A stretch of DNA of 64,000 bases from Tribonema minus (taxonomy: Eukaryota > Sar > Xanthophyceae > Tribonematales > Tribonemataceae), in contig JAFCMP010000036.1 of NCBI GenBank assembly GCA_017506865.1, positions 1 to 64,000 of the forward strand, read 5' to 3'. Positions 7,601 to 62,078 of this stretch are shown here, one piece after another. Made by a program: the position numbers and the translations under genes. Position 1 is the stretch's first letter, and the number at the start of each line of letters is the position of its first letter. The notes beneath the pieces were generated by a model, which made no database searches, was not told the origin of the DNA, and saw only the letters and a program-made list of their open reading frames with translations.

Positions 7601-9058
7601 GCACCTCTGCAGGACCTTGACCAGCAGCTGCGACTCGTCGCGCAGCCGCACGGACACGTTGACCACGCCGACCACGGCGCTCTCCGCATCGCTCGCAGCG
7701 CTGCTGCCGCCGCCGCCGCCAGCATCGCTGCCGCCGCCGCCGCCGCCGCCGCCGGCAGCTACATCAGCGCTGGCGTCCAAACCAGGAATAAGCCGTGGCA
7801 AGACCCCCCCTTCGTGCGCCCCCGTTGCAGCCCCCTCCTCTCCATGCGCCGGCGCCGGCGCCGCCGGCGCCGGCGCCGCTGCCACCGCGCCGCGTCGCGT
7901 CGCGCGCCACCGCTGCAGCACCGCCGGCGCCCTGCCTGGGCGCTCGAGGGCGAGCGCGGTCTCCGTGTCGGCGGCGGCGGACGCTGCTGCCAGAGCGCGC
8001 AGCTGCTCCGCCGGCAGCACGGCGCGCCCGAGCAGCTGCGTGCGGCGCGAGAAGCGGCCGGCGGCGCTGCACGGGCTCGCGGGTGCGGCGGCAGGCGGCG
8101 CGGCGGTGGTAGCGGCGGCGGCGGGGGCGGCAGCGGCGGCGCTGCTGCTGCTCACTGCTGCTGCTGCGGAGCGCGGCCCCCACACCTCCACCTCCAGCGT
8201 GCCGGGCTGCGCAGCGGCGGACGACAGGGTGTGGCGATCAGCTGACCAGATGCGATGTAAGGACATTGCGGCGCGTCACTGCAGTGCTGTAGAGGGACTT
8301 GTCCTACCCTCACAGGCCTTTGAAATTGCCAGTTCACCTGGCAAATACGCCGACTCGCGACGCTGGCGCTCATCTTCAACGAGCAAAAACATGGCCCTAG
8401 CACTACCCCCTGCCCCTAACCCCAACTCGCGCGCGAGCTGCTCACCGCGCGCAGCAGCTCCAGCGCCGACGGCCCCCACACCACCTCAAACCACTTGGGG
8501 CTGTCCAGCGGCGCCGGCGCCGCGTCCCCCACCACGCACTGGCACCGCGCAGCGCCCCCCCCGTCGCCCCCCAGTGGCAGCGGCGCATCGCTGAGCGCTG
8601 ACGCGTAATCGCGCGGCGCAAAGCCGAGGAGGCGCGCCGCGAGCGTCGAGCGCGCGCCGTGCAGCACGAACGCCGCCACGTGCGCGCGCGCCGTCGAGTA
8701 GAGCGTGAAGCGGCGCGCGCGCGCGTCCCAGTGGCAGCGCAGCCCCGCCGCGCGCCAGCCTGCGAAGCCCTCCGCTGCGGGGCGCATACGAAAGGGGGGG
8801 GGAGGGGGAGTGCGTGGTACGCAGAGCGTCACGTTTAAAGCAACACCCTCCGCTGCAAAGCGCGCACGCGCACGCTAGAAAGAGACAAAGAGAGAGAGAG
8901 ACCCGCAGCTTGTTGGCAACGGAATAGGGGGGAGCGGGGGGAGGGGCGCAAGGGGAGGGTACCCTGTACAGCACAGTGCCACTTGTGGGAACAGCGCAGC
9001 GCAGTGGCAGCGCAGCTCTGCCAGCCCGCGAAGCCCTTCGCTGCGCGGCGCGAGAGAC

Positions 9059-9092
<34 letters not shown>

Positions 9093-9631
9093 TAGCGCAT
9101 TGGTATGCGAGGCGTCACGCTTAAGGCCCGCTGCGCGCTAGCCCGCAGAGCCCTCTGCTGTAAGGCGCGCAAGCGCACGCTAGAGAAAGAGAGAGAGAGA
9201 GCGACGTGGCGTGATGGTGGGCACAGGAATGGGGGGGCAGGGTGGGAGGGGAGGGGGGGGGGGACAGGGGAGGGCACCCTGTACAGCACAGTGCCACTTG
9301 CGGGAACAGAGCGGTCAGAGACTCCACTAGCCGCGGCCATCTGGGCGGCACTGCAGCGAATAGCATAGCGATGCTGCCAATGCGGCGCCGCCGCCGCTAC
9401 TCCTGCTGCCGGACGAGGCACAGCTGTGCGCTGCCAAAAAGCAGGGCATGGAAATAGAGCTTTCCGCTGCGCAAGCTGCAGACCGCATCGGTCCTCAAAA
9501 TGGTACTCGATGTGTGACCATCAATTTGGCACCGCACTCGCAACGCACAAGCGCTCCAACCGCGCTCGTCTCACCGATGGGGTTCTGCCGCGCCGCCGCC
9601 GCCGCCCCCCCCGCCGCTGCCGCCGCCGCCG

Positions 9632-17400: not shown

Positions 17401-19814
17401 AGTGCTCACATACATGCTGCACTTGCGTTTCTTTGTGGGGTCCAACATCCTCAGATACACACGATGGTGTAAACCTGGAACGATGATATTTTAGCACCGG
17501 TTTCTGCGCTCCCAGCTGCAGCGTTGGAGTGCAAATCTCATCATAACCGAAGGACGGCACTCCCCTCCAACTCAAAACACATTGGCCCTGGCACCCATTG
17601 ATCTCAGCGACTGACGTGCAGCCTGCTGTCCCGTCCGCCTGCGCGTGCACTACCCTCAACCCTAACCCTGAGCAGGCGCGCAAGGCGCTCGCCTCGGGCA
17701 ACCACGCGCGCATCAGCGGCGGGCGCATCATGGTCGGCACGAGCGCCATCGACGCCGCCGCCGCGGCGCAGCTCGTGGTGGACGATGACGCCACGGAGCG
17801 TCTCGCGCGGCGCTGCGCGTCGCCCCCCCCCGCGCACGTCCCCCTGGGGGGGGGCGCGCGGCTGCGACCCCCGCGGCAGCGCTCCCCAGGTGAGCCGCTG
17901 TGTGGTCAGTACGGGTTGCAATTGAAGTTGCAGTTGAGGTATATTCAAAGCTTGAAACACGGTGCTCACAGCACGCCGTAAAACGCACGGCGCTGCGCGT
18001 CGCCCCCCGCCGCACACGTTCCCCTGGGGGGGGGGCGCGTGGCCGCCACCCCCGCGGCATCGTTCCCCAGGTGAGCCGCTGTGTATGTCAGCATGGGTCG
18101 CAATTGAAGTTGCAGTTGAAGTATGTCAATGCTTGGAACACAGTGCTCACAGCACGCCGTAAAACGCGTGGCGCTGCGCGGCGCCCCCCGCGCACGTCCC
18201 CCTGGGGGGGGGGGGCGCGACCGCGACCGCCGCGGCAGCGCTCCCCAGGTGGGCTGCGGCGGGCCGGCCTGTGTCTTGTTCGTGTCAGCGCATTCATATG
18301 TTCTCGCGTGTGGTGTCGAGCGACGTCTTTCGTGCGGGATCTGGTGATCCAACTCAACACCCAACACTCATTTTGGTTTTTTGGTCACCCTGAAATTTAT
18401 AGAAGTATGTTTATTGTCCCGGGTTTTTGGATTACTAGCCATGCCTTCTGTAAATATGCAAAGAAACTAATATTTGGGTATGTATCTTGCTGTGATGTGA
18501 GATCGCGCGCCTGGCGCGCTCTGCGTCTCATGAGCTCGGCGACGCCCCCCTGGAGCGGCATGCGAAACACCCCCGCAGCAACGCTCCGCGGAAGGGTTGT
18601 TTGTTCTGCCGCGCCGCTTGGGATGCTTGCCGCATCGCCTTCCAAATGGTGTTTGTTGATCGGCGGCATTGTGAAGCAGCCTACCAGACGCTCTCCGCCC
18701 CCTAGGAGAGGCACGCGCGCTGGCTCTGTAGCAACGCTTGCTGCCCATGCGCTGCATCTGAGCATTGCAGCTACCACATGCATTGGCAGCGAGCAACATA
18801 CGAAATGGAACCAGTCCACGGGCTGAGATGTCCATATTTGCGCCACTTTGCACTGAGGCGCGTCGTGCACGTCTGAATCGCTCCGCCGATGCTGCAGCGC
18901 CATCGGGTATGCGCCGCCGGTGCGGCCGCGCGCCACGGTGCGGAGAGTGGCCGCCATCGACGACTCCGACCTGCTGCAGGTGCGCTCGCGCGCTTCAGCT
19001 CCATGCAGACGGCGTTCAGACAACTGTTCTGTTTGGTGGTGTCGCCCTGTTTTCGCGCCTGCGCTGCGTGCCTCGCTCACCAACCTGGCTGTCACAGCCG
19101 CGTGCGTTTGGAGTTGCTGGATGTCTCAAGGGCCTAGGCGCACTGGCAACTGCTTCGAACCGCTACAAGCAGGCCCATTGATACTCGGCGCTGGTTGAAA
19201 GCCTGCTGACTTGATGGTGACACACGTCGCCGGGCCGCCTGCGCAGTCGTTTCCAGGCGCTCCTGCGCCTGACGCCGTCATACCAGCAGTCGCCTTGCAT
19301 GTTGTTCAAAGAGTGAGCAGTTGCGTCGCTGTTCGCAAGTCGTCTCGTTTTGGCCCACCCTGCAGGTCAGAACAAGATCTGATTCAGAAGCTGTGCCGCC
19401 GCGCTGCGATCACCGCGCGTTCACTGCGGCTCTGCAGCGATTGCTGCATCTGACATGCTGCGGGTACTTCCACGGCGCGCGATTGTACGTACGCTCGGTG
19501 ACGGCCCTACGTCTGCTCCTAGGCTTGCGAAGAGGGGGCTGATGCTGAGAAGTGGTAGACACCTGCTCGCGCAGTTCACACGTGCCTGCGTCCATCGTGC
19601 AATACCTGTGCTGTCTGACGACCGCAACACGAATGGCAAGTCCGGTGTTGGCACCGCATTGACACAGGTAGACACAGAACTTATCTGTGCTGACTGCTGC
19701 CGCCTTGCGCTGCTTGCGTGACGCGCGCAGGAGGCGCCTAGAGCGCGCAAGTGGAACGTCTGCGACCGCATCTACCAGTACATCTTCTCGGGGACGCGGG
19801 CGGTGCACGACTAG
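14407..19814 (+). CDS. NUP35: Nucleoporin NUP35/NUP53 (MPPN RRM-like domain)
   Basis: Exons: 14407-14717, 14986-15125, 15547-15722, 16463-16525, 17676-17889, 18898-18979, 19731-19814; about 356 residues, near the usual 320-400. The N-terminus is Gly/Tyr/Ser/Gln-rich with [10 protein letters not shown], as expected for a pore protein. Exons 3-5 encode the Nup35 [14 protein letters not shown], then [18 protein letters not shown] across the exon 4/5 junction, then [11 protein letters not shown]. The C-terminus ([15 protein letters not shown]) resembles the family's amphipathic membrane-binding tail. Role, from the family: inner-ring scaffold of the nuclear pore. Phases match except between exon 5 (ends phase 1) and exon 6 (needs phase 2). 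Exon 5 contains C and G runs, so a run-length error or a missed exon is likely. Confidence 0.88.
15999..16255 (+). repeat. Interstitial telomere-like repeats in NUP35 intron 3
   Basis: Degenerate ttaggg units occur at about 15999-16038. A short inverted pair (ggttagggtaagg then ccctaaccctgag) lies at about 16211-16255 and could form a hairpin. A third cluster is at 16658-16702 in intron 4. Confidence 0.75.
17805..18262 (+). repeat. Three tandem copies of NUP35 exon-5 end + donor + intron
   Basis: The last ~80 bases of exon 5, its donor and ~95 bases of intron occur three times in a row. Donors are at 17889/17890, 18071/18072 and 18248/18249, a period of 177-182 bases. Every unit ends ccccag|gtg, and the first two continue gagccgctgtgt. 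Intron parts share caattgaagttgcagttga and ctcacagcacgccgtaaaac. Homopolymer lengths differ between copies, so copies 2 and 3 change frame relative to copy 1. Confidence 0.92.
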
Positions 19815-20293: not shown

Positions 20294-23200
20294 ATGCGGC
20301 GCGCTTCCATCCCTCATGCAGAGGGTGGACCAACGCTTGACATCGAGTCGGAGCCCAGCGCCGAATCCACCCTCTTGCCGGCGAGATCCTCTGTCAACTA
20401 CGGTGCTGATCAGGAGATCATGCCCCCCCCGTCGCAGCGCCAGAAGCAAAGCGAGGGCCAGCATCAAGAGGATGGCGATAAGGACAGAAAGCACAGGAGG
20501 AAGCACAAAGGGTTGAAATTCCTGTCAGGGCTCATGGCATGGAAAAAGAGGGCAGCCCCTGTTGTCAAGCTGCATCAGAGACTCATAGATAGGTGAGCGT
20601 GGCATGTACTGACGCATGTTGTGCTGGAAACATCTGCTCAGGCTGCTGGCCGTGTGCAGAAACTGGTCAGGAAGGGGGCGGGTCACGCATCGGAAAACGT
20701 GACATGTCACGAACCCCCAGAGACAACAGACTTGCAGCGCTAGGAGCTGTGTTGCCTGGCAATGCCAGCACCATATGCGGCATTGCTCTCACTTGCTGAA
20801 TGCCACACGACAGCGTGCACGTAACCGCTGCTACTTCCACCACACATGACTTTGACACACGCATAGACTGCGCATACTACGGGAGACGCGGCAATAGATG
20901 TCAGCGACGACACGAAAACGCAGAAATTTCCGATACGTATTGATGCCCATGCACCACACCAAAGCGCGCACATCCCAAAAAGCGAGACCGCTGATGAAGC
21001 TGCCGTTGTTCTTGGATCGCACATGTACCATGCAGCAACATGTTCAGCACATTTGCCCCCAGTTATTTGTTCAGGAAAGGCGTTATTTGTGTCGCCTGTG
21101 CGTCCCCGCTAGCTGCGAAGTAACCGTGCAGTGCGGTAGCTGCAGCTCGTTAAGACTCCTGCGCCTCGCTGCATTGCGCTGATCACTGCTGGCAGTCCGC
21201 GTTCATCAGCAGTTGAAGAAGGGTGAAGCGCCACGCGTCACATCTGTGCACTGCAGGCTGAGTGCTTGACACTGGATAGCGACGCCGTAGCGTAGTCTTG
21301 AACAAAGCTGAAATCAGACATGAGTACGCTCTGAGTACCCCACTCTCTCCGTAAACTCAATGTGCGCATGCCGTCACACATTCATGCCCGTAACTGCCGA
21401 TAATGTCACAAAACAGTGGAAACTCAAAGCGCGGCCGCTTGCAGACGTGTGGAGGGTGCCGTGCACCCCAGCAGCCTGTAAGTGGTGCAAAGGCGTTGTC
21501 ATTTTTGCATTCACGCGGGCAAGCGCGGCTCTGAATACATACACACAACATAGCTAACCAAAGTACATGCCGGCGTATCCGATAGGCGAGAAGAGCGTGC
21601 TGGGGCACATCGATGCCGGTAGGTGCTTTGCTCTGACTGACAATCACTGCCTTATGAATCGAGATGAACCGTCTATGTTTTGCACACGGGCGCGCGCGTG
21701 GGGGGGGGGGGGAGGGGGGCAGTCGGCCCACCTCAGCGACAGCGTGGTGTTTGGTGGTGGCAGAGGCATGCACATCACGGCCCCCGATGCACGGCGACAG
21801 CGCTCGTTGCACCGCGTGTGCGCGGCGGCGACGCAGCGCTCCCTGTTTAAGGATAGGTTAAGGTTAGGGTTAGGATCAGGGCAGGCAGGGCCCAGTAGAC
21901 AACGAGCTGCGAGGACTCAATGTGTGATCGTTCGATGCTTGTGGCAGTGCTCACCCCTAAACTTTGAAGGGGCTGATGCTCATCAGAGCATGAGGCTGGT
22001 GCTTGTTACAGCATCCATGCCTGGTACTTGTGATATGTCAACGTCCTTGTGTACTCTGGACGCGTCCGCACGGGGGCAGAGCGTACTGTGACATCCAGGG
22101 GTAGGGCCCAGCGCTGCGGATACGATGTAGCGACCAGTACCCCTTTGTTGCGGCCCGGCCATAGTTCTCAGCAATACATGGTAGGTATGCTCCACCGTGA
22201 CATCGCTCAACGTGTGAGGTCGCCACATCCGTTCGTTGCGACAGCAGGGACTGCTCGTGCCACCATGGCTACAGGCTCTACGGACACGATACAGCGACCA
22301 TTACCCCATTGTCATGCCGCACCGCAATTCCCATCAATGAAAGGCGCTTCACCGTAATATTGCTCAGCATACGCTCTGTGTCGATGTTCAAACCGCGCTC
22401 GCGCAGGTGCCTGCCTCACTTCCGGCATGCAGTAGCGCTTCGCTGTGACAACGCTCATCACGCACTCTGTGAGAACTTCACTGTAACACCGCTTTGCATG
22501 GACTCTGTGATAAGAAGACAGTGCTCAGCATGCGCTTCGTGTCGATGCTCAACGCGCGCGCTCGCGCAGGGACAGCACGTACCATCCGTTGTCACAACGC
22601 TCAACATGCACTCGGTGACGGTTTCACTCTTGAAGCTGCTTAGCATGGACTCTGTGACGAAGTTCGACGTGCGCTCTGTGACAATGCTCAGCATGTGTCA
22701 ACGCTCAATGCGCGCTCGCTCGTGCAGGGACAGCACGTACCACCAGAGCTACGGGCGCTGGAACATCGACCGCAACACCAAGGACGACCACATCCGCACG
22801 CTCTTCAACAACGACAGGTTCCACACGGTGCTGCACATGACGACGTGGAAGGTGCTGAGGTGAGGGGGGTGGAAAGCAGCGGGCAGACAGGGGGTGTCGC
22901 TATGTTTGAATCAGGGTAGCGCTGATGAGAGGAGGCAACGGAGATGGCGTTGTACAGCATGTAGAGATGCCAATGCCCATGCGACACAATCGCAACGGCC
23001 ACATGATGGAACCCGGTGCATGCAGTGTTGCGCTAGTGACAACAGGGGCCTCAATCACTGACTGCTCACCCCTTACCCCCTCCCCTCCCCCCGAACCCCC
23101 CCCTTCCTTCCTGCAGCTACCTATTCTTTGCGTACCTCGTGGTGGTATCGACGTTTGCGTTGATTTACCTCATCATATCGCACTTCGACGGCTGCAATAT

Positions 23201-26200
23201 GGGCATCGTCGACTACAGGGAGGCGTACTATTTTAGGTACGATCTGCAATATTTGTACTTCAAATATACTTTGTAATACTTTTGGCATCATTTTTGGCAG
23301 TCCTCGCTGGTAGTGCAGGGAAAAGCCCAGGACTTTGGTATGATATTGCAGAAGCGTTTTTTCATTACAAAAGGTTGCCTTCAGCACCTGACAGTACTCA
23401 CAGGTTAATGACAATTATGCATGCCTGTCACCGTATGGTTTTGTGGTCCGAAAGCGGACATGCGCCAAGATAGTCTCTGTAGTTTTGGTTGCAAAGATGG
23501 CGTGCATGATCATCTGGCACATGATGTGTCAACGGCTGTGGGGTAGTATGTTGTGGCTGCTGTTGAATGTGGGGAGCGTAGGGTTAGGGTGAAAATTGGG
23601 GTCAGGGCTAGGTTAGGGCAAGGGTTGAACCCTGCGTTGTGTGCCACAGTACGTGTGCGCGCTGTATGACAGTCACGCGCGTGCACTCAAGTGTGCGCGG
23701 ATCCGCGCGACAGGCGGCGGCGCTGGCGAGGTGCCGCTTTGTACCCTCGGTTTTGGTCGAAGCGACGCAGGGCAGGGGTTGAGCAACAGAGCGGACAATA
23801 CCCAACTCATTTTGAGGGGCCTGCACGCCACTTTCTTGTACCTTGGGTGCTACACATCGTTGACGTTGCTGCCAGTTACCCGAGATCCGTGCTAGCCGTC
23901 ACGCGGGGAATGCGTCTGCACGCAAAACACCCTGTATACCTTGTGGCCGTTTCCACCCTGGAGATGCACCGTGTCAACTTCAGTTATAGAGTGCCAGTTT
24001 TGAAGTGCACGTGCCACGCACTGCTCACCTGATGGTATGCACAGTTGCACCTTGCGCATAGTTGCACCTTGCAGCGATACTATAGCAAGTTCTGCACAGA
24101 CCCAATGGCTGCATGTCATTTGCACGTGTCCGTGCCTTGCTCACGGCGTGTCCAGTGGGCATGTAACGTTGCACTTGGCCAACCATCTCGAATAGCATTA
24201 TTTGCACGAGCGCTCGCCTGCTTCTGATTGTACGCATGACGTGTGAGTGCAAGCGCCACTGACATCGTACTCGTTTGCCTTGCCTTCCCGCGCATGTTAT
24301 TGCTTTTGAGGGCCACCAGTCTGGAGACCATGACGACGGTGAGCACTGTTGCTGATTGCCAACATTATCCCTACCCCTAACCCTACGCATCGACCAGCAC
24401 GAATGATAGGTGATATGCAGATCGACTGAGGCTATACGATGCATCGCTCGTGACGAAAAACGGTAATGATTTCGAATGCCCTGAAAGTGTGGTCGGGAGC
24501 TCTGAACCGAACAGTAGCGGCGGTCGATCGCGAGTGTGCTCCCACTTTTTGCCTACGGCAGCGCTTGACATGTTTACAGCTTCAGGTGATCACAAAAGCA
24601 CCATTGCGGACACTCTTTCACCTGTAACGCCTGTAGCTCGGGCACCGTAATTCGGGCACTGTAGCTCAGGCACTGTCCCGGCAGAGCTTGAGCCACAGAT
24701 TGGAGTACGTGCGTGCCGCCCATTTGCTCCCCCTGTGCTGGCACATCCTCTCCAGACGCGCTAGAGTGGGGCACAAGCTGCATCAGCCACTTGCTTTCTC
24801 GCCGCATGCAGAGTGTCCCGGGGGGGGGGGGGGTACCCTGCCGCATGACCGCAGCCTTGTTTTCGCAGCAGCTCTCCGTGCGCATGCGCCGCGATGTGCA
24901 AGCAGTGCACAGTTTGTACACACAGTGCACAGCTTGTGCGCAGCCCTCGCAGCTCCCGCCGCGCGGTGTGATCGCGGCATCAGCGCGGCGGCGCCGCGAG
25001 GCGCACGTCACACATGAAGTCATGCTACTGTGAATGTTGGTAATTGCGTCGTACTGCGGCAGGCGCGTGGATCACTGTGGCCGCCTCGGTGTGCGCGCGT
25101 GCGCTGCACCGCAGTGGCGGCGGCAACGCACGCGGCCATCTCCCGCGCTCTTCTCGACGATCCTCTCCGGTCCGGCCAGCTTGATGCGCACTTCAACCAA
25201 GGCAACCTCAACAATGGCAGCGTCGCTGCTCGCTGCGCGCCGAAACCTGCGCCGTGAACGTGTGCGCCGCCACGCTGACCCTCGCCCGCACCCTATGCCG
25301 CGCAGGTTGGCTATGGCACGCAGGGCGTGTTCTTTGGGCGCTGCTGGAGCGTCATGGTCGTCATCCGTTACAAGTGATGGTGATCCCTATAAGCGACACT
25401 CGCACAGCCTATTAGAGCTGACCTATGCCTCTCTAAGTGCATGATCTCTGTTTGCCCCGGTGTACCGGTGTTCGAAGTACACGATCTTTTTCCCGCACCA
25501 CGAGGTCGTCATCACTGCACACGGCACCTGTGCGCTGCCCCCTCAGGTCGGCTACGGCACGCAGGACGTGTTCTTTGGGTGCTGCTGGAGCGTCCCACGG
25601 TTGTCATCTGTCACAGCAACACTCGTTCATCACTCGCATCAACGCAGCCAGTCACATCATCTGGCTGATATATACATGCCAATGGGAACGAACGCATGTC
25701 GCTCCCGTGCTCTGCCCCCTCAGGTCGGCTACGGCACGCAGGACGTGTTCTTTGGGCGCTGCTGGAGCGTCATGGTCATCATCACGGCACAGGCATGCTG
25801 CGGCCTGCTCATAGATGCGCTGCTGATTGGCGTGCTCTTCGCCAGGTGCGCGCTGCGCGCCAGTGATGCTTTGAGACAGTTTTGAACGTGCTGATGACGC
25901 ATTGGTATGCTCATCTTGGGAGGCTTGGGGATTGGGGGGGGGGGGGCTGGAATGGTAACTATGACGGCGGCTTGTAATTTCAAGTGCACTTGAGGTTGGA
26001 CAGTCTACTCGTTGTTTGGCCTGCTCATAGATGCGCGCTGCTCATCGGCGTGCTCTTCGCCAGGTGGGCGCCAGCGAGATGCTGGAAGGTGTTGAGAATG
26101 CGTTGACCAAGCATTGGTTGCTCTTGAAGACGCGCTTGTGGATTGGGGGCGGGGGGGGGGGGGGGGGGGGGGTAAAGATTAAGTCGGCTTAGAGTTGAGT

Positions 26201-29200
26201 AGATGTGAGTTTGATCAGTTTGCTCAATGTTTGGCCTGCTCATCGACGCGCTGTTGATCGGCGTGCACTTTGCCAGGGCGGGCTCCGCGTCAATTATGCA
26301 TACTTCGGCGTACGCTCACCGCATCGCTCGCGCTCGCGCCGTCACAGACGAGCACCGTTGTGTTCAGCAGCATGTATGCCGCATGTCTGAAGGATTCTGC
26401 CATTCATGCATACCTTCGCTCGAGCTCATGTTGCGCTGCTGCAGATGCGCGCGAGCACTGGGGTGTTCAGCACCACATATGCAATATGATTGTACCATTA
26501 TGTTGAGTTCGAACCACTGCGTCACCCGAGCTCACGCTGCGCCTTTTGCAGGCTGGCGCGGCCGCAGACGCGCGCGAGCACCGTGGTGTTCAGCAGCATA
26601 TACGCCGCATGTTTCCATGATGGTGCCATACACGCATACCCTTGACGAGCAACCGATGCATTGCTCAATCTCACATCGTGCCTCGCCCAGGTTGGCGCGG
26701 CCGCAGACGCGCGCGAGCACCGTGGTGTTCAGCAACAAGGCAGTGCTCAGGCGCATCCGCGGGGAGTACTACTTCATGTTCCAGGTTTGTGCGCGTCGGG
26801 CCTTATTAGTGGGAGTGTGGAAAAGACATGCCGGTGCCCCCTCCCCAAGTGATGTACACGTGAGCGCAATCAGTTGCACTGTAGTGCACCAGCGCGAGCC
26901 GCTTACGCTGCGGTGGTAGGGAGCTGGTCGCGCAGAACAGTGGCCGCTGCAAGCGCTCTGTTGCTAATTTGTGTTTCGCTGTTCGCAATCCTTAGTGGAC
27001 CTGAGCACTAGTGCTTTTGAAGCGATGCCTCTTCGAGTTTCTTGAATCACGATTTGTGGGGGTACGGCGCCTCTGTGGCAGAGCGTGCACGATCCTCAAC
27101 ATCAACCCTAGGGCTATTGCATGCAATGAACGTACTTGAGAAGCACAATCAACAATGTGAGCGCACCGCCTGGCAACGACGACACGCGCGTCGCACATAT
27201 GACTATGCTTGCTGGGCGCCCTCTTGCAGTCGCATCGTCGGCACCTGTGAATTCATGAACGTCCAAGTGAATGGCCAATGAATGGCGCAAGTATGAATGG
27301 CACAAGTCTGATACGAGCTCTTAGCGAGCCGATACTACAAAGTACTCCAATATACGCCAGTCTTGCCAGCACGCGCGCGGCGCTCCTGTCACGCCAAACG
27401 CGCTGCACCTCTGATGCAGGCTGCCTTCACGTCAGGCAGCAGTGCTCACCGCACGCTGTGACAGGCGGGCGCGCTGCGCAGGCACCTGCTGCTGGTCAAG
27501 CCCGCGCTGTGCGTCGCTGCCGACTCGCGCAACCGCCATTTTACTTCATGAAGTATCTGCACCATACAGGGACGTATGTACGTCTGTCAGTCTGAGCTGT
27601 ACACAACAAGCCACAGCCGCGGCGGAGCATCATCAAGGCAGCGGCTGAAAGCGCCCGCTCGCTGCTCGCGACAGGTGGGCGAGCTGCGCAAGCACCAGCT
27701 GCTGGAGGCCAATTCTTAAGGCCGCACTGCGCGTCGCTGCCGCCTCGCTCGGCCTGCTGTCGTCCTCAGTGTACAGAGCATTGAACCACTGCCCACAACG
27801 CAGCGCGTGACGAGGCAAGCGCACATCGCGGCAGCTGAAACCGCCACGCTCGCTGATCGCTGCCGCAGGTGGGCGAGCTGCGCAAGCACCAGCTGCCGGA
27901 CACCAGTGTACGAGGCCGCGCCGCGCGTCGCTGCCGCCTCGCGCAGCCGCCATCTCATGCGTGCAACATAGGGAACAACTACGTATGAGCTATGAGCATC
28001 AAGCCACAAACACGGCAAACCATCATCACAGCAGCAGCTGAAACTGTCATGCTCGCTGAGCGCTGCGGCAGGTGGGCGAGCTGCGCAAGCACCAGCTGCT
28101 GGAGACCAAGGTGCGCTGCTACGCGGTGCGCCACCACCGCACGCTGCCGATAGACGCGGCGGGCTGCCTCGACGATGCGAACCCGCCCGAGACGGTGCAC
28201 TACCAGACTCACAACATGCGCCTGCAGCACCCCGACGACGAGCTGGGTGGAGCGCTGCTGCTGGTGCTGCCGCAGGTGCGCGCGCGCGTAGCAGTGTTCC
28301 AGAAGTATGCCATATGGTCGGTCATTTGCGACTGCTGTTAGAGCACCTCTTCCACTTTGCAGTGGTGTGACGCGAGCAGCACCCCAATGGCAAGCTCGGC
28401 GGAGCGCTGCTGCTGATCCCGCCGCAGGTGGGCGCGCGCTCTGCAGTGTTCTACGCCTTACACGGTCGGTAAGCGCGCGGTGTCAGCCTCAACCCTAACC
28501 TCAGCCCTGCGGCGCAGCTGAGTGGTGCACCACGTGGCGCACACGTGTCCTCCCCCACGCCCCCTAACCCTATAACTCAATCCCCAATCCCCAAACCCCA
28601 ACGCCGATCCCTTATCGCACCCCCCTCCTTGCGGTGCAGCTGGTGGGTGCACCGCGTGGACGCGTGGTCGCCCCTCATGCCCCCTAACCCTAGACCCAAC
28701 CCTATTACCCAAAAGCGTCAGACCTAAACGTAACCGAACCGTTCACCGCATCAGGGCAACTGTGTGGATGCGTGATCCCCCTCATGCCTCCGAGTCCTAG
28801 AACTGAAACCCAACTCTCAAAGCTAAAGCCTCAACCCTAACCCTAACCCTAGTCTATCCCGTTTTGCAGCGCAGTTGGTGGTGCACCGCGTGGACGCGTG
28901 GTCGCCCCTCAACTTTCCGCACACTATTAAATCCAATGCGATCACAGCTAACCCTGACCCCCTTTTGCAGCAACCCCTTTGCGACGCAGCTGGTGGTGCA
29001 TCGCGTGGATACGTGGTCCCCCCTCATGCCCCCTCATCCCAAACCCCAAAGCCTCAATCCTACCCCTACCCCTGACCCCCTTGGTGTGCCTCCCCTCCCC
29101 ACGCACCCTGACCTTACAACCGAACCCCCAAACCTCTGAGTCAACACTGATCCCTTGTCGCAACCCCCGTCGACGCGCAGCTGGTGGTGCACCGCGTGGA

Positions 29201-32200
29201 CGCGTGGTCCCCCCTCATGCCCCCGCCGCGCTGGGTCAGCGCCAGCGGCATCGTGCAGTGGGGGGTGCACGAGGACTGCGACTGGAACCGCGCCCCCTGG
29301 GAGTCCCCCAGCTCCCCCGAGGACAGCCCCACGGCGGGGGGCGCAGCGGGCGAGCAGCACCAGTTCACCGAGCCTGGCAAGGTCAGTCATTGATAGCTGA
29401 TATGCTCCTCAAGAGTGTGACAAGGATGCCTACTGCCTGACCCTTGCACCCTTTAACCCTAACCCTAAGCCCTGAGGACAGCCCCACTGCGGGGGCGGCA
29501 GCGGGGGGCGAGCAGCACCAGTTCACCGAGCCCGGCAGAGTCAGTCGTTGTTGCCTGAATTGCTTGAGTGTGTATAAGGATACCTACTGTACTGCATTAC
29601 CCTTACACCCTTAAGCCTGACCCTAACCCTGACTGCACTTGCTAGGCTCGAGTGTGTGTTATGTGAAATGTACCGGCGAGCAGCACCAGTTCACCGACCC
29701 CGGCAGGGTCAGTCACTGTTCCCTCAAATGCTCAAGTGTGTGAGGAAACGAATCAAAGATGGTAGAGCTCTAGGCAACAAGGTGTGGTTAGCCGACAAGT
29801 TGAATGCCTTCCATCGATGTCCGTGGTCGCCGCTGCTGCGGCAATTGGCCACGAGTGTGTCGGTGAACAATACCACTACACTTGAGCCCTTTGGGGTCCT
29901 TCAAACATGCCGTACTCGAGGGCGCATGACCTGAAACCTCCGGAGCCCTGCCAATGCTGTGCCTTACTTCAAAATTGTGTGCTCAAGAGGATCGTGTGAT
30001 GCTGTGTGCTCCATGCCGGTGACGGGGCAAAGGCGCCCCTGGCGAGATTGCTGACCCATTGGATCATCAAAGCGGCTCATTGTGCCAGCACACTGCATAA
30101 TGTGTGGCGGGGGGGGGGGGGCAGCTTGCCACCCTAATGTTCTAGTTGCCACACCATCATGGAGGCCATGATGAGCTCTGCATGGCATTTTCGAGTTGAA
30201 GATTGCACTCAACCGCGGCGCACCCCATACGTCAGCGTGGCATGCTCTGCTGCCACCCCCCCAAGTCATGGTCTGGCCACGCACTGAATCAACTTGAGGG
30301 GGACTGACCGTCACCACAACGGTTTCTTTGCTGTGCCGTGGTGCACCCCAGATGCTCAAGCGGCAGACGGCGTACTGGGACTCCGTGCAGCAGGACCCCT
30401 ATAGAGGCGGCGAAGACTCCGAGAAGGGGCCGGGATACGTGAGTCCAACAAGACGCATGTCATTGCCTGCGTTATAACTCACGCACCCCTACTGAAGTTG
30501 CGTACTTTGCTTTGTACACACTGTACACACTGTGTACTTCAGAGTACAGTATGTGTTCAGAGTACTGGGACTCCGTGCAGCAGGACCCCTAAGTACAGGG
30601 GCGGCAAAGACTCCGAGAAGGGGCCGGGATATGTGAGAATCGAACCTTCATGCTGTGCCTATCGGACCTAGCAAATGCGTCCATCAGCAGTGCCCCTCGC
30701 CCACTCCGTTGTGCGGACTGCATGGTTCAACTCAATGTCCAGCAATCGCAGGTCAGGTTAAGTCTCCGCGTGGCACCCTTGCCTTGCCGCGCCGCTGTCG
30801 TGCCCGCAGGTCGCAAGTTTTGTTTCCTGCCGTGACCCTGAGTGCGCTCGCTGCCTGCGCCGGTGTACTGGTTCCTGGACCCTGCTGAAAAACTCTGTGC
30901 GCTCAAAATTGAAGGTCATCTCTGTTATTGTCCGTGTAAGCACCCGATCCTCGCTACGTTGCATGCGCGGCGCCGGCGGCGCACGTTGCCCTCACATGCG
31001 CTGCCCTGACCTGACCCCTTCGCGCGCACGCGCGCGCTGCGCAGGCGCACCGGTTCTCACACCTGCTGTGTTGCGCGCGCTACCGCATGCCTCGACTCGC
31101 GGTCCAGCCACCGCAGTCTCAGGTTCAGTCGCAGCACCCTTTCCTCGTCGCCTCGCACTTATGCCAGCGCCTAGCGAGTTCCAACTTTTTTCATCGCCTG
31201 CCCTGACCGTCGTTCGTGTGCGTGCGCGTGCTGCGCAGGTGTACCGCTTTCCGGACCTGCTGAAGCGCTGGGACGACATCGACGGCGAGAGGGGGACGTG
31301 GTACGAGCGCATGAAGCGGCGCTGCACACGTGAGCCAAACCCTAGCCCTAGCGCACACGCGGCAGCGGTGATCTGGTGTTCTGATTTTGGTGCCCGCTTG
31401 TGCTGTGTCGTATGTTGCGCCAAACCTTTGCGACTGCCTGATAGGTCTGAGCTCAATGTTTATTTGCTGACTTGAACCCGCACCATACTGTGCACACGTG
31501 AGCTGAACCCTAGCCCCAGTGCGCACGCAGCAGTCACGACGATCAAGCGCTCGCCTTTGCCGCCATGGACCCATGCTATGCCATCACTCGCCCATGTATG
31601 CACAATAATATAGAAGTAGGATTCTTGGGCCCCGTGCGCTCGCTGTTGCTCTTCATATGTGTTGTGATCTGGCGCGCACGGCAGCATCGTACACACGTGC
31701 CAACATAGATCCTGAAGTGTACGGCAGGCATATAGTGGATGCACACATCAGCTTTGACCCTGGACTATACAGTAGGTATTTACACGCGAATGGCACACAA
31801 CCCTTCAAAGTATTGTAGTAAATGTGCGCTTCCCTCTTGGCTGTGCTGGGGCACACGTGGCGGGAGAGCAGTGCACTCGTCAACATCTGGTTAGGGTTAA
31901 GGTTAGGGTTAAGGGTAGGACATAGATACATACCGAAGGACATGCGCACACGCACACAGCCCTTATTTGTTATCACCAAGAACTGTCCTATGCCGAAGCG
32001 TATGCGCGTGAGCGCTATCCATACGCTTTACACGCACACGTCTTGAAGCTTCTCATGTTAAATGCGTGCTTCACTCCTTGCAGTGATGGAGCACGCGCGG
32101 CAGCCCTTATTTTGTCAACAAGTACTGTCCGTGCCGAAGCGTATACGCGTAAGCGTTGCGCGTATACTCACACGCACACAACTTCAACTTCTTCGTGGAT

Positions 32201-35200
32201 GCGCACTTCACTCTTCTGCAGTAATGGAGCACACGCGGCAGGAGCGCAGCGCACTCGTTGATATACTGAAGGACATGTGCACACGCACACAACCCTTCTT
32301 TTCATACATAGGCACTGTCTATGCTGAAGCGTATACGTGTAAGCGTTGTGCCTATGCTCAACACGACTTCATGTTCTGCACACAACTTCAAGTTCCATCA
32401 ATGCGCACTTCACTCTTCTGCAGTGATGGAGCACGCGCGGCAGCCCTTGTTTTGTCAACAAGTACTGTCCGTGCCGAAGCGTATACGCGTAAGCGTTGCG
32501 CGTATACTCACACGCGCACAACTTCAAGTTCCGTCGATGCGCACTTCACTCTTCTGCAGTGATGGAGCATGCGCGGCAGGAGCGCGTGCTGCGCGCCAAG
32601 GCGTACAAGGCCAGCCTCGCGGAGGCGGCGGCGGCGGGCAGCGCCGCGGCCGGCGACGCGCCGCCGCCGCCGGTGCCGCCGCCGATGCTGCGCGCCAAGT
32701 CCACCGCGCTGCCGCTCATGAACATTGTGCACGACCACGTGAGTGCGCGCGTAGGCTCGAACAGAAGGTGCGCGTATTCGTATCAGCGATTCTGGCTTGA
32801 CGCAAGAGGGAGGTTAGGCATGGTCAGTGTGATACCGGCGCACCCTTATTGATTGATGTGGTGCTGGAAGGTCCGTTGTGCCATCGCGCACTGACACAGG
32901 ATAGACAGTGCACCCGTACCAAATGTCATTCAACTTTAGATCAACCCTGACCCTAAGCTTATAGCAGCGCCTCACATGTACGTCAAGACCTGCGTGTCAG
33001 TCATGGCAGCATTTCTGTTGTGAAAGCAACCTGGCAATCAAGGTGTCCGCTTGGGAGCACTCCAGCTTGCCAAGCGGAAACTCGTGCGCCATGCGCATGC
33101 GCCCTCACGAATGCGCAGCCGCCGCATCGCCTTCAGCAGAGTAACCCTGCCGCTGCGCTCTGCGACTCACTTCAAGACCCCCCCCCCCCCTCCCCGAGCA
33201 GGAGATCCTCGAGAACCCGAGCGCTGCCACAACCACGGCGGCGTCCAGTATGACAGGGTCGCCGCAGGCGTCGGAGGCGTCAAGCGCGCAGGGCGGCTCC
33301 GTGCGGCAGCGCCAGCGCAAGAGCGCACCCATGGACGCCAAGCTGTGGTTCGCGCAGGAGGAGCGGCGCGCGATCGCCGCGTTTGTCAAAGACAGGGAGC
33401 TGGAGGTCGTCGTCATCGTCGAGGGCATAGGTGAGCGTGGGGCAGGGGCTTATAAGAAGGGTTTGTTCGTCAAGGTGTTGATATGGAAAAAAGGTTAGCG
33501 TAGGGTTCAAATGAGGTTTAGGGTCAGAACTAGGGTTGAAGTTAGGGTTAGGGAGCGGCGCGCGATTGCCGCGTTCGTCAAGGACAGGGAGCTGGAGGTC
33601 GTCGTTATCGTCGAGGGCATAGGTGAGGGGGGGGGGGGCATGCATAGATCAAGGGTTGAAGTGAGTTTTAGGGTCAGAGCTAGGGTTGAAGTCAGGGTAA
33701 GCGACGTGCAATCTGAGCTTTCATGCAATCTGAGCTTTCATGTACTGATGGAAGTGATTATATCCATGCTGGCATAGCAATCACCAGATTGCTATGTCGC
33801 CGCTGCATTATGGGTACGGCCATATCATGGTGACAGCACCAGCTCTCGTCCGATCGCTGAAGTTAAGCACCCTTGAGCGGAGCTAGTACTACGGTGGGGG
33901 ACCACGTGGGAAGCCTCCGTGCTGTACTCTTTTTTTCCTTTAGAAAGAAACGTCTGCAAGTGCAGCAAGTCAAGTGTGTGTTTGTAAACAAGACGAATAC
34001 GAACAAGAAGGCTTATTATTTCAGTGGTGCCTCACCACGAACCCTTGGTTGGGACTGCCCCCTTATCTCATGTAAATGTCGCTGGTCGATGCTCCATAGA
34101 ATTCATCACGCCTGGCACCAGCACGACACAGCGATGCCATTTCCATACAGAGGATTGTCTGATGCTCCAAGTCTATGGAAACGCATCAAAGGATTGTAGA
34201 GCCTTAGGTGACCAGGTGTGGTTAGCCGTCATATTGATTGCCTTCTACCAACCGTGGTCGCCGCTGCTGCGGCAATTGGCCACGAGTAAATCAGTGCCAC
34301 CATACTGGTTGCGAGATGGCTGGCAATAGCGCATCATGCAGCATGTGACATTCTGCACACACACACCGCCTACGATCCCAGCCACAGCTCATGATGCGCC
34401 GCGTTCTGCTGTCTCCACCTGTCTCTGTGCTGCAGATACGAGCACGGGCAGCACGGTGCAGGTGAGCGCTGACACAGTTTGGTGATCGCACTTCAAGCAC
34501 CACGTGTGGTGACCCTGGCCCTAAACTCACCACTGCCGTGGAGGTGCCGGTGCCTGTAAGCTCGCGCGCCATGTGCGCTTAGCGCAGCTATGCAGCTGTC
34601 CTGCCTATGCGCACAAGAGCAGCGGAGCACTGTTGCCGCAATGCGCTGGCTGCGCTGCACGCCCCTGCGCCTTGCCCGCGAGAATGCACAAATCAACTGA
34701 CCGCCGCTGGGCTGTGCAGCAGTGCTCATCGGCTGCACAACGTGGATGCCCATTTGCAGTCAGCGCTCCGCAAACGCCACACCCCCTGGCTTGATCGTAT
34801 CATTGTGCGGGTACAAGACCAGGCAACGAATGCAACGCGCTGCGGTGTGCAGCGCGGCATGCACGCGTGTAGTTGGGCGCTGACAGGCGTCCGCCGCCTC
34901 AACTCCCGAAATAGGTTCCAGCACGTAGTATTGGCATTTGGTGTGTCCCGTGTCATTGCTCAACTCTGCAAGCGTGCCGCTCGTGCGCCATGCATACGGC
35001 AGCCGTGTCAGCAGTGTTCGCTATTCGTTTTGGTGCATCAGCCTCCGCTGACCTCGTGCCGTACAATGTGCTGCGGACATTTGACACATCACCATCCATG
35101 GTCTAGCACCGCGCGACCCCGAACTTGATTGCGCGCGCGCGGCCGCGTCCATGTCGGGCCGCGCTACGACAAGACATTGCATTGCCAGCTGCGCCTGTTG

Positions 35201-35618
35201 CTGTACCTAGCGGGGACCTCGCTGCGCGCGCAACGTGGAGCGCTGCAGCAGCACGCTCAACCTCGCCTCGCGCGACGGCGGCGCTGCTGTGCAACTTTGC
35301 ACGGCGCAGATCCTCACTCTCACACTGTATTGGCGTTTTTGCACCCGCCGCACGCCAGCGCTGCGGCAATGCGCGCGTTGCCGCGCCCGCTTGTGTGAGA
35401 TTTTAACCCCCCTTTGCGGCGTGTTTCTGTCCCTCCGGGCGCGCGCGCAGTGCCGCTACTCGTACGCCGTCGACAACATGGTGTGGGACCACGCGATAGG
35501 GCCGTGCGTCACCAAGGACGCCGACGGCAAGTGCGTGGTGGACTTCCTCAAGTTCCACGACGTGCGCGCCGCGCCGCCGGACTGCATCGACTCCGGCTTC
35601 GTGCAGAGCTACGCGTGA
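20294..35618 (+). CDS. Inward-rectifier K+ channel (Kir family), 14 exons
   Basis: Exons: 20294-20592, 22728-22859, 23117-23236, 24320-24338, 25724-25845, 26691-26784, 28072-28275, 29181-29381, 30352-30438, 31239-31329, 32560-32738, 33202-33430, 34436-34461, 35451-35618. All phases agree and give 656 residues. Residues 1-100 are polar. M1 is in exon 3 (YLFFAYLVVVSTFALIYLII, ~145-164). The pore helix and filter span exons 3-5 (YREAYYFSLETMTTVGYG, GYG at 192-194). M2 (QACCGLLIDALLIGVLFAR) has Asp221 at the position that gives strong rectification in Kir2. ARLARPQTR matches the lipid-binding linker. The cytoplasmic domain follows (FMFQVGELRKHQLLETKV, HRVDAWSPL, ELEVVVIVEGID, VQCRYSYAVDNMVWDH). 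A ~210-residue Pro/Ala/charged insertion (residues ~345-560) separates the last strands, where animal Kirs have ~20 residues. Role from the family: K+ flux, probably lipid-gated. Confidence 0.93.
22370..22745 (+). repeat. Exon-edge echo array, acceptor of Kir exon 2
   Basis: Before exon 2 (starts 22728) the intron is built of degenerate repeats with tgctcagcatgc..ctctgtgac units. The acceptor context cgcgctcg(c/t)..gcag recurs near 22394-22402, 22556-22571 and at the real site 22713-22727. The copy at 22556 continues into exon sequence (ggacagcacgtacca) before diverging. Confidence 0.85.
24320..24338 (+). other. 19-nt microexon of the Kir pore (exon 4)
   Basis: The sequence ccaccag|t ctg gag acc atg acg acg|gtgagc supplies one base plus six codons, completing Ser and adding LETMTT between exon 3 and exon 5. 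Without it the channel would lack the end of the pore helix and the Thr of the TVGYG filter. Phases on both sides fit exactly. Confidence 0.85.
25289..25790 (+). repeat. Exon-edge echo array, acceptor and filter codons of Kir exon 5
   Basis: Three copies of cag|gtcggctacggcacgcag start at about 25303, 25546 and 25724 (real exon). Each continues through gtgttctttggg and tgctggagcgtc, so each encodes VGYGTQ(D/G)VFFG(R/C)CWSV. Copy one stays similar for ~70 bases, then reaches a stop; copy two diverges after ~55 bases. Several differences between copies are synonymous. Confidence 0.92.
25795..26280 (+). repeat. Exon-edge echo array, M2 end and donor of Kir exon 5
   Basis: The exon end (ggcctgctcatagatgcgct...gtgctcttcgccag|gtg, donor 25845/25846) is repeated at about 26020-26074 and, more diverged, at 26231-26275. 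The downstream intron parts also match, including gacgcattggt/ctcatcttg versus gcgttgaccaagcattggtt, and end in G runs at 25935 and 26149. Confidence 0.9.
26330..26735 (+). repeat. Exon-edge echo array, acceptor of Kir exon 6
   Basis: Four copies of the acceptor edge occur at about 26340, 26440, 26551 and 26691 (real). The best copy, 26551-26595, matches ggcgcggccgcagacgcgcg and agcaccgtggtgttcagca exactly. Copies are followed by shared intron text such as atgccgcatgt and cacgcatacc, at a spacing of about 100-140 bases. Confidence 0.92.
27465..28105 (+). repeat. Exon-edge echo array, acceptor of Kir exon 7
   Basis: Copies of gcaggtgggcgagctgcgca / agcaccagctgctgg lie near 27475 (weak), 27671, 27867 and 28070 (real), a period of about 195-205 bases. 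Intervening intron shares aggcggcagctgaaa.. and gctcgctg..gctgcg words. The shared exon part is ~30-35 bases long. Confidence 0.92.
28230..28450 (+). repeat. Exon-edge echo, donor of Kir exon 7
   Basis: The exon 7 end and donor (gagcgctgctgctggtgctgccgcag|gtg, donor 28275/28276) recur at about 28392-28445 as ggagcgctgctgctgatccc then gccgcaggtgggcgcgcg. Intron matches continue through cagtgttc and atggtcgg/cggtcgg. Confidence 0.9.
28505..29225 (+). repeat. Exon-edge echo array, acceptor of Kir exon 8 (five copies)
   Basis: The edge cgcagctggtggtgcaccgc / gtggacgcgtgg..cccctcatgccccc occurs at about 28512 (partial), 28637, 28870, 28986 and 29178 (real). Between copies the intron is made of ccctaaccc-type and ccccaa-rich text. 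Copies carry small insertions that shift frame or substitutions such as gcg to acg. Confidence 0.93.
28832..28851 (+). repeat. Telomere-like ccctaa array inside the Kir exon-8 echo array
   Basis: Just over three perfect ccctaa units (caaccctaaccctaacccta). Further degenerate units lie at 28490-28500, 28564, 28683 and 29452-29466. Confidence 0.9.
29310..29720 (+). repeat. Exon-edge echo array, donor of Kir exon 8
   Basis: The exon end (gaggacagccccac..ggcgagcagcaccagttcac, donor 29381/29382) is repeated at about 29475-29550 and 29670-29715, each followed by gtcagtc. The intron text after each donor also matches (ctcaa..tgtga, tacctactg..cttacacc). Confidence 0.93.
29745..29868 (+). repeat. 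Dispersed repeat, copy 1
   Basis: About 120 bases resembling 34165-34292, with long exact blocks (aggtgtggttagccg; ccgtggtcgccgctgctgcg followed by gcaattggccacgagt). Both copies can be read as similar peptides: here KRIKDGRALGNKVWLAD then CPWSPLLRQLATS. Family unknown; possibly a fragment of a mobile element or an old coding sequence. Confidence 0.75.
30352..30640 (+). repeat. Near-complete duplicate of Kir exon 9
   Basis: Exon 9 (30352-30438) from tactgggactccgtgcagca onward is repeated at 30563-30637, including donor gtgag. The copy has ccctaagtacaggggcggc where the exon has ccctatagaggcggc. It lacks the start of the exon and reads through a stop, so it is not a clean alternative exon. 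Confidence 0.9.
30838..31275 (+). repeat. Exon-edge echo array, acceptor of Kir exon 10
   Basis: The real site (cgcgtgctgcgcag|gtgtaccg..ttccggacctgctgaa, exon start 31239) has a copy at about 31022-31070 (gcgctgcgcaggcgcaccgg / ttctcacacctgctg) and an older one at about 30845-30890 (gtgtactggttcctggaccc / tgctgaa). Confidence 0.8.
31310..31530 (+). repeat. Exon-edge echo, donor of Kir exon 10
   Basis: The donor context at 31322-31365 (gcacacgtgagccaaaccct / agccctagcgcacacg) is repeated at 31488-31530 as gcacacgtgagctgaaccct / agccccagtgcgcacg. Confidence 0.9.
31815..32590 (+). repeat. Exon-edge echo array, acceptor of Kir exon 11 (five copies)
   Basis: Copies of gtgcgcttc..ctctt..gcagtgatggagca then cgcggcag occur at about 31822, 32060, 32199, 32401 and 32539 (real exon start 32560). 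The intervening intron is itself repeated: gtactgtccgtgccgaagcg, tatacgcgtaagcgttgcgc and gtatactcacacgcacacaa recur at spacings of roughly 140-200 bases. Confidence 0.93.
33345..33640 (+). repeat. Duplicate of the last ~74 bases of Kir exon 12 plus donor
   Basis: Exon 12 from gagcggcgcgcgatcgccgc to the donor at 33430 is repeated at about 33556-33627, again followed by gtgag. The two differ at four bases, all third codon positions and all synonymous (Ile, Phe, Lys, Val). Following intron parts also match (agggttgaagt, tttagggtcagaactaggg versus tttagggtcagagctaggg). Confidence 0.95.
33812..33929 (+). rRNA. 5S ribosomal RNA
   Basis: The ~118-base sequence gggtacggccatatcatggt...gtgctgtactc matches the eukaryotic 5S consensus: helix I ends pair (gggtacgg with ctgtactc), the internal promoter words gaagttaagcacc (box A) and ggtgggggaccacgtggg (box C) are present, and so are ctcgtccgatc and tagtacta. 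A T7 run follows directly. It sits in intron 12 of the K+ channel gene on the same strand, so the Pol III unit lies within a Pol II transcript. It looks intact. Confidence 0.95.
33930..33936 (+). terminator. Pol III T-run terminator of the 5S gene
   Basis: Seven consecutive T residues immediately after the 3' end of the 5S sequence, the usual Pol III stop signal. Confidence 0.85.
34165..34292 (+). repeat. Dispersed repeat, copy 2
   Basis: Partner of 29745-29868. The same reading register gives SKDCRALGDQVWLAVILIAF then QPWSPLLRQLATSKSV. It starts ~230 bases after the 5S gene. Nature unknown. Confidence 0.75.
34436..34461 (+). other. 26-nt microexon of the Kir cytoplasmic domain (exon 13)
   Basis: ctgcag|atacgagcacgggcagcacg gtgcag|gtgagc supplies DTSTGSTVQ between VEGI (exon 12) and CRYSY (exon 14). 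This matches the conserved Kir strand-turn EG-x-x-x-T-T-x-x-x-QCRSSY. Phases fit on both sides. Confidence 0.88.
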
Positions 35619-61833: not shown

Positions 61834-62078
61834 CGCTGCGTGGCGTAGCTCTCTTCGTTCTCGTCAAGGACTCAAAAAAGTTCAAGTTTCCGAGCGGTGT
61901 TGAAGTAAGGTGGAAAAAAAAATTTGATCTGAGATAGCTCCAAGTGTTCACAGGTTGGCGATTGCAGGGTTCGACGGCTTGCGAACGGCGTTGAAAAGTG
62001 GTTTCAGAGACCACCCGCACGGCTGCCGTGGAGAGCGGCTTCCGACTGTCAACAGCGGAAAGCGCGGAAAGGTTCTAC
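61834..62078. promoter_or_regulatory. Divergent promoter, listerin / TSG101
   Basis: 245 bases between the start codons. Contains ttcaagtttcc (61880) and ttgaagt (61900-61906), and an A-rich tract at 61913-61921. No clear TATA box. Confidence 0.5.

What the first reader, a model, noticed from the sequence alone, without database searches (positions are those of the whole stretch)
20593..34435. Exon-edge echo arrays: K+ channel introns built from tandem copies of exon ends with splice sites
At most junctions of this gene the adjoining intron contains 1-4 further copies of the exon edge (about 20-75 coding bases), its splice site and some intron. Acceptor echoes occur before exons 2, 5, 6, 7, 8, 10 and 11; donor echoes after exons 5, 7, 8, 9, 10 and 12. 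This accounts for much of the gene's 15 kb. Tandem duplication across splice junctions is known as a route to new introns, but repeated arrays at nearly every junction of one gene are, to my knowledge, not a described intron architecture.
Basis: seen in the sequence. Interest (0 to 1): 0.9.

Follow-up and report, generated by a model that had tools for sequence, protein, structure and literature searches.

The report
Exon edges copied repeatedly into introns
In a potassium-channel gene of an unidentified eukaryote, half of the exon-intron borders have been copied, one to five times, into the neighbouring intron, and a few borders of other genes on the same stretch show the same, which points to introns growing by repeated duplication at their own edges.

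Summary
At 27 bits, exons against adjacent introns give 23 plus-strand hits, 23 at the facing edge; shuffled introns average 0.03. Read by eye, nine more copies lie at six junctions of other genes. Of 32 short-range direct-repeat pairs passing a complexity filter in 64 kb, 31 lie in junction arrays (three of them intron-only parts of such arrays) and one starts 23 bp behind a donor; none is inverted. Copies carry frameshifts, so they are not coding. Uniform random duplication plus better visibility of exon-derived copies does not explain the junction bias. Exon-derived parts are better conserved between copies than intron-derived parts. Best reading: repeated staggered-break or template-switch repair across junctions lengthens introns; the exon-attached copy stays functional, the others decay. 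Single cases are known (potato RdRp gene); I found no report of such arrays in ten searches. RNA, relatives and the organism's identity are missing.

The parts
20294..35618 (+). Kir-type (inward rectifier) K+ channel gene, 14 exons: 20294-20592, 22728-22859, 23117-23236, 24311-24338, 25724-25845, 26691-26784, 28072-28275, 29181-29381, 30352-30438, 31239-31329, 32560-32738, 33202-33430, 34436-34461, 35451-35618
   Evidence: open spliced frame; PDB and Pfam matches
22111..22742 (+). array before exon 2 (weak: 15 exon bases copied at 22570-22584; the outer pair 22111/22275 is intron-only and linked to the exon by a 64% alignment)
25282..25792 (+). two acceptor echoes of exon 5 (exon starts copied at 25306 and 25547; working acceptor 25724)
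25846..26299 (+). two donor echoes of exon 5 (exon ends at 26063 and 26276)
26326..26690 (+). three acceptor echoes of exon 6 (26326, 26429, 26552); the two outer ones have lost AG
27444..28102 (+). three acceptor echoes of exon 7 (27465, 27675, 27869), spacing 194-210
28371..28450 (+). donor echo of exon 7 (exon end at 28427)
28483..29224 (+). five acceptor echoes of exon 8 (28518, 28640, 28755, 28875, 28990); spacers with telomere-like CCCTAA repeats
29382..29743 (+). two donor echoes of exon 8 (29539, 29707)
30562..30637 (+). donor echo of exon 9 (exon end at 30632); intron side of the copy not similar beyond gtgag
30717..31264 (+). weak acceptor array of exon 10
31323..31533 (+). weak donor repeat of exon 10 (7 exon bases plus intron)
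31793..32585 (+). acceptor array of exon 11 (echoes 32084, 32222, 32424), spacing 136-202
33509..33704 (+). donor echo of exon 12 (exon end at 33622); a telomere-like TTAGGG repeat ends where the copy begins
17804..18257 (+). Nup35-like gene: working donor 17889 and two donor echoes (18070, 18248), period about 180
   Evidence: Pfam RRM_Nup35
45232..45445 (+). adaptin/coatomer-like gene: donor 45263 with decayed echoes 45348 and 45399
   Evidence: Pfam Adap_comp_sub
47531..47791 (+). same gene: donor 47577 with echo 47773
5198..5708 (-). minus-strand gene (weak resemblance to voltage-gated K+ channels, no Pfam match): acceptor 5256 with echoes 5424 and 5605
   Evidence: (E 0.03)
7484..7649 (-). 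minus-strand gene: donor 7605 with echo 7490; 51 of 51 bases identical, little similarity beyond
8721..9312 (-). minus-strand gene: acceptor 8774 with echo 9040

Best explanation
The echoes are non-coding relics of repeated short DNA duplications that cross exon-intron junctions. A staggered break (or a template switch) around a junction is repaired so that 20-90 bases of exon edge, the splice site and some intron are doubled, with or without filler such as telomere-like repeats. The copy joined to the exon body keeps working because selection preserves it; the other becomes intron, is pushed outward by later rounds, and decays. Shown: the copies, their placement, orientation and non-coding decay. 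Inferred: break repair as the cause. Not settled: why junctions are hit or kept so much more than intron interiors; either breaks are concentrated at exon edges or copies are refreshed by exchange with the selected exon.
For: 23 of 23 adjacent exon-intron matches at 27 bits sit at the facing edge, all in direct orientation; 24 of 26 at 22 bits; 0 inverted pairs in the window. Echoes have 18 gap openings (14 not a multiple of 3) and 74 nonsynonymous to 43 synonymous differences in 1102 aligned bases. AG or GT is kept in 27 of 32 echoes (read by eye), about what 90% identity per base gives. The inner copy is sometimes the closest (exon 6: 72, 81, 96% from outer to inner), but the exon 7 and 8 arrays are not ordered. 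Telomere-like 9-mers: 94 against at most 16 for the nine other necklaces of the same letters; 4 of 11 clusters in the Kir introns lie within 3 nt of one of 23 exon-side echo ends, mean 0.27 under circular shift, 3 of 13344 shifts reach it (P 0.0018 if the exon 8 array counts once). I noticed this pattern before testing it, so these P values are optimistic.
Against: A uniform duplication process predicts a majority of intron-only arrays and none stands alone in the Kir gene, so an extra junction-linked factor must be added. In several arrays the exon-derived part is too well conserved for its intron part under plain neutral duplication (Fisher combined p 4e-8 over 16 arrays), and this holds between two non-coding echoes too (81.6% exon-derived against 56.9% intron-derived; unrelated introns 47.8%), which break repair alone does not explain unless flanks were filler. 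No relatives, no reads, no RNA.
Confidence: 0.5

Rival explanations
1. Anchored concerted evolution: junction-spanning tandem duplications arise anywhere, but those touching an exon stay alive as arrays because the selected exon edge keeps converting or re-duplicating its echoes, while intron-only repeats drift apart and vanish.
For: Exon-derived parts of non-coding echoes are better conserved than intron-derived parts; some arrays have related but badly diverged flanks beside nearly identical exon edges (minus-strand acceptor 5256, exon 7, exon 8).
Against: Real exons carry silent changes absent from all their echoes (exon 5 donor side, exon 8 donor side, exon 11), so exchange is not frequent; some outer echoes have decayed; homology of 20-60 bp is short for conversion (general knowledge); young intron-only duplications should still exist.
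Confidence: 0.23
2. Echoes have a job in splicing: decoy or recursive splice sites (AG followed at once by GT), kept by selection.
For: Exon edge plus splice site is the conserved part; 27 of 32 echoes keep AG or GT; all four Kir acceptors whose exon starts with GT have echoes, against 3 of 9 others (Fisher p 0.07; 0.22 without the weak arrays).
Against: Splice dinucleotides are not kept better than the exon copy; five echoes lost theirs (26326, 26429, 26276, 45348, 45399); copies carry frameshifts; number and spacing differ from junction to junction; donors show no AG preference.
Confidence: 0.12
3. Ordinary uniform tandem duplication made visible only where one copy is frozen by coding selection.
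For: The frozen exon does make junction copies easier to see; about six of 16 arrays fit a neutral full-unit tandem duplication.
Against: Simulation with frozen exons gives a junction share of 0.21-0.40, P(13 of 13) between 1e-9 and 7e-6 and P(at least 12 of 13) between 6e-8 and 1.4e-4. With introns evolving 6 times faster P(13 of 13) is 1.5e-3, 10 times faster 0.012 for full tandem units and 6e-4 for short repeats; with the 10 strong junctions alone the 10-fold case gives about 0.03 (my arithmetic), so a very fast intron clock would weaken the test. It treats arrays as independent and uses my own rate range.
Confidence: 0.1
4. Assembly or sequencing artefact.
For: No reads were available.
Against: Copies differ by substitutions and indels, introns of the gene share only one repeat with each other, and the exon chain gives an intact Kir protein.
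Confidence: 0.03

Closest known systems
Junction-crossing tandem duplication in the potato RdRp gene (Ma et al. 2016, PMC4974935; parts 1 and 2 of 5 read)
   Same: A tandem duplication crosses an intron-exon boundary and doubles the acceptor with some exon.
   Different: One event that created a new intron and changed the mRNA; here arrays of up to five copies at half of a gene's junctions, and the gene model needs no extra exon from them.
[quoted passage not shown]
   Same: Local tandem duplication supplies extra splice sites.
   Different: There the duplicated segment is exonic and becomes an intron; here pre-existing junctions are doubled and introns only lengthen. None of the 23 strong copies lies at the far end of its intron.
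Staggered double-strand-break repair in Daphnia new introns (PMC4202315, passages read)
   Same: Direct repeats ascribed to staggered breaks, repeated bouts, passive growth of introns.
   Different: [quoted passage not shown] here 20-90 bp of exon edge is copied into the near side of introns. In Daphnia internal repeats are commoner in new introns than in established ones.
[quoted passage not shown] 2016; only the title seen, in the reference list of PMC8316200; details recalled)
   Same: Would give short direct duplications with or without filler.
   Different: Not linked to splice junctions, as far as I recall.

Membership tests
Inward rectifier K+ channel (Kir) | IRK transmembrane and IRK_C cytoplasmic domains with a GYG selectivity filter | tested here: met
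   Pfam IRK 40 bits, IRK_C 81 bits; TVGYG in the spliced protein
[quoted passage not shown]
   all 23 strong exon copies are of the edge facing that intron and carry the splice-site side of the exon
Junction-spanning tandem duplication (potato RdRp kind) | duplicated unit crosses one exon-intron boundary | tested here: met
Junction-spanning tandem duplication (potato RdRp kind) | whole unit (exon and intron part) homologous between copies | tested here: inconclusive
   fits six of 16 arrays (Nup35-like donor, exon 7 acceptor and donor, exon 8 donor, exon 11, acceptor 8774); fails for others such as exon 9 donor, 7605 donor, 47577 donor
Introner / transposon-born introns | one element family shared by many introns, with target-site duplications or terminal inverted repeats | tested here: not met
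   Kir introns compared with each other share one repeat only at 38 bits or more (introns 8 and 12, 79.9%); 0 inverted pairs within 700 bp. Only this window could be tested.
Recursive splicing sites | AG/GT ratchet points shown to be used in RNA | not testable with these tools
   AG directly followed by GT exists in several echoes; no RNA data

The most novel reading that the evidence does not exclude
Duplication is aimed at splice junctions in this lineage: something that happens at exon edges (transcription, splicing or chromatin at the border) causes local breaks or template switches, so that introns grow from their ends inward, and exon edges plus splice sites are stamped repeatedly into them.
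Probability: 0.3. Interest if true: 0.85.

Novelty: new variant of a known kind. Interest (0 to 1): 0.6.

Why it matters
How introns become long is usually answered with transposons or slow neutral insertion (general knowledge). Here a large share of intron length in one gene can be traced to duplications of the intron's own borders. If genome-wide, this lineage would let one date and order successive intron-lengthening events, and test how spliceosomes choose among up to six similar splice sites in a row.

Tried and rejected
Chance GC-rich similarity: rejected, though non-adjacent exon-intron pairs also exceed shuffles a little (4 minus hits against 0.52 at 27 bits; 20 and 25 against 7-8 at 22 bits), probably base composition. 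Coding or alternative-exon role of echoes: not supported, given frameshifts and codon positions 31/39/47; there is a mild third-position excess, and the share of silent changes looks higher in the closest copies, but silent changes of the real exon are counted several times there, so I make no claim. Uniform neutral duplication. Nucleosome-sized period: spacings run from 51 to 266, too broad and too few to claim. Recursive-splicing tolerance: only a hint. Shared element family in the introns: one pair only. Relatives: one scan of viral contigs with part of the Kir protein found none; no genome is held for this window; metagenome scans were capped at 0 and not tried; the one genome-contig scan (bacteria and archaea) was not used. 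Rfam gave only a 5S rRNA. Ten literature searches found no such arrays; two of them returned nothing at all and two listed 15 of 48 papers. PMC4201569 (passages) and PMC2891723 (outline and abstract) do not describe such arrays in what I saw. My Nup35-like exon chain did not close to an open frame, so its junction count is approximate.
Full report
What was checked. I built the gene model by reading exons and joining them: 14 exons, 20294-35618 on the plus strand, every intron GT-AG, one open frame of 659 codons. The protein is an inward-rectifier channel (PDB 3sph E 3e-26; Pfam IRK and IRK_C). The boundaries are inferred from frame and homology; no RNA was available.

The echoes are real. Each exon was compared with all 13 introns. 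With a cut-off of 27 bits, which I chose, there are 23 plus-strand hits to an adjacent intron, and all 23 lie at the exon edge that faces that intron; there are no adjacent minus-strand hits, 1 plus and 4 minus hits to non-adjacent introns (shuffles 0.46 and 0.52), and a mean of 0.03 adjacent plus hits in 100 dinucleotide shuffles, maximum 2. At 22 bits there are 26 adjacent plus hits, 24 at the edge, and 6 adjacent minus hits, against shuffle means of 1.13 and 0.9. The 23 fall at 10 junctions; three more junctions (acceptors of exons 2 and 10, donor of exon 10) have weaker arrays in which little exon is copied. Nothing was found at these cut-offs at the donors of exons 1, 2, 3, 4, 6, 11, 13 and the acceptors of exons 3, 4, 9, 12, 13, 14. 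The exon 8 acceptor has five extra copies. Spacings run from 51 to 266 bases over all genes.

It is not confined to one gene. Reading the sequence around other repeats, I placed nine more copies at six junctions: a donor of a Nup35-like gene (Pfam RRM_Nup35), two donors of an adaptin/coatomer-like gene (Pfam Adap_comp_sub), and two acceptors and one donor of minus-strand genes, one of which weakly resembles voltage-gated K+ channels (E 0.03; no Pfam match). A list of direct repeats within 700 bases and above a complexity cut-off has 32 pairs in 64 kb. One (16547/16731) begins about 23 bases behind a donor and is not clearly a junction copy. The other 31 lie in junction arrays, but three of them are intron-only pairs inside such arrays (22111/22275, 31930/32263, 33509/33659); the first is tied to exon 2 only by a 64% alignment. 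The cut-off itself hides the two coatomer-like arrays, so other low-complexity repeats may be hidden too. The same search finds 0 inverted pairs, and 0 direct pairs in each of 10 block shuffles. The Kir introns share only one repeat with each other, an element in introns 8 and 12, so the arrays are not one family. The other genes are much sparser than the channel gene: 2 of 10 junctions in the modelled coatomer-like part, 1-2 of about 10 in the Nup35-like gene, whose chain I could not close.

What the copies are like. Against the real exon, 1102 aligned bases in 23 Kir echoes show 117 substitutions, 31/39/47 by codon position, 43 silent and 74 not, and 18 gap openings of which 14 break the frame. 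They are not maintained as coding sequence. AG or GT is kept in 27 of 32 echoes (counted by eye), about what their general identity would give.

Why at junctions. A duplication that leaves the exon intact must lie in the intron or cross a junction, and a junction copy is easier to see because one partner is frozen. I simulated uniform duplications with that bias: the share detected at junctions is 0.21-0.40; 13 of 13 then has a probability of 1e-9 to 7e-6, and at least 12 of 13 a probability of 6e-8 to 1.4e-4. With introns evolving 6 or 10 times faster than exon-derived copies, 13 of 13 has 1.5e-3 or 0.012; with short repeats plus filler 4e-5 or 6e-4. With only the 10 strong junctions the 10-fold tandem case gives about 0.03 (my arithmetic). 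The test assumes independent arrays, my own rate range, and counts the three intron-only pairs with their arrays.

Exon parts against intron parts. If a whole unit was duplicated and both copies drift, the intron side should match the exon side in age. For six of 16 arrays it does (P above 0.2), for eight the intron side is too different (P below 0.05), two are between; combined p 4e-8. The exon 12 array is a partial false alarm: a 42-base shift hides its intron homology. With MAFFT on 15 arrays, pairs of echoes (both non-coding) agree at 81.6% of exon-derived and 56.9% of intron-derived bases; unrelated introns give 47.8%. Ten of those 24 echo pairs come from the exon 8 array, so they are not independent, and choosing the best local match inflates the exon side somewhat. 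The cleanest case is the donor at 7605: 51 of 51 bases identical in its echo, little similarity beyond. So either only the edge was copied and the rest is filler, or the exon keeps refreshing its copies, or the copies are under constraint.

A hint at break repair. Telomere-like TTAGGG repeats are abundant (94 nine-mers against at most 16 for the nine other necklaces of the same letters). Four of the 11 clusters in the Kir introns lie within 3 bases of an echo's exon-side end; circular shifts average 0.27 and 3 of 13344 reach four. Two of the four are in one array; counting it once, P is 0.0018. The pattern was noticed before it was tested. That telomere repeats can be filler in break repair is from general knowledge, not from a call.

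Reading. I think these are relics of repeated local duplication by repair of staggered breaks or template switching across junctions. The known parallels are single or small: a boundary-crossing tandem duplication in a potato gene (PMC4974935, parts 1-2 read), exonic AGGT duplications (PMC3443670, passages), and 4-12 bp exon-edge repeats ascribed to staggered breaks in Daphnia (PMC4202315, passages). What seems new is the number, the concentration on junctions, and the share of intron length explained. I cannot tell whether junctions are preferred when the copies are made or when they are kept.

Noticed in passing
window 33812-33930 (+): A complete 5S rRNA gene (Rfam 105.9 bits, followed by a T run) lies inside intron 12 of the Kir gene, same strand.
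   Followed up: partly
window 29728-29873 and 34162-34305 (+): A shared element of about 145 bases (79.9% identical), with what looks by eye like a GC-rich hairpin, is the only repeat that Kir introns share with each other (introns 8 and 12); a 28-base core matches twice and never in shuffles; no Rfam family. Possibly a small RNA gene or SINE.
   Followed up: partly
whole window, 22 clusters, 11 in Kir introns: Interstitial telomere-like TTAGGG/CCCTAA repeats; those outside the Kir gene were not placed on gene models.
   Followed up: partly
window 55864-61863 (-): A listerin-like (LTN1) open frame of 1999 codons without interruption, beside genes with kilobase introns.
   Followed up: no
window 16547-16819 (+): Direct repeat (70%) starting about 23 bases behind a donor of the Nup35-like gene, the only listed short-range repeat not tied to a junction array.
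   Followed up: partly
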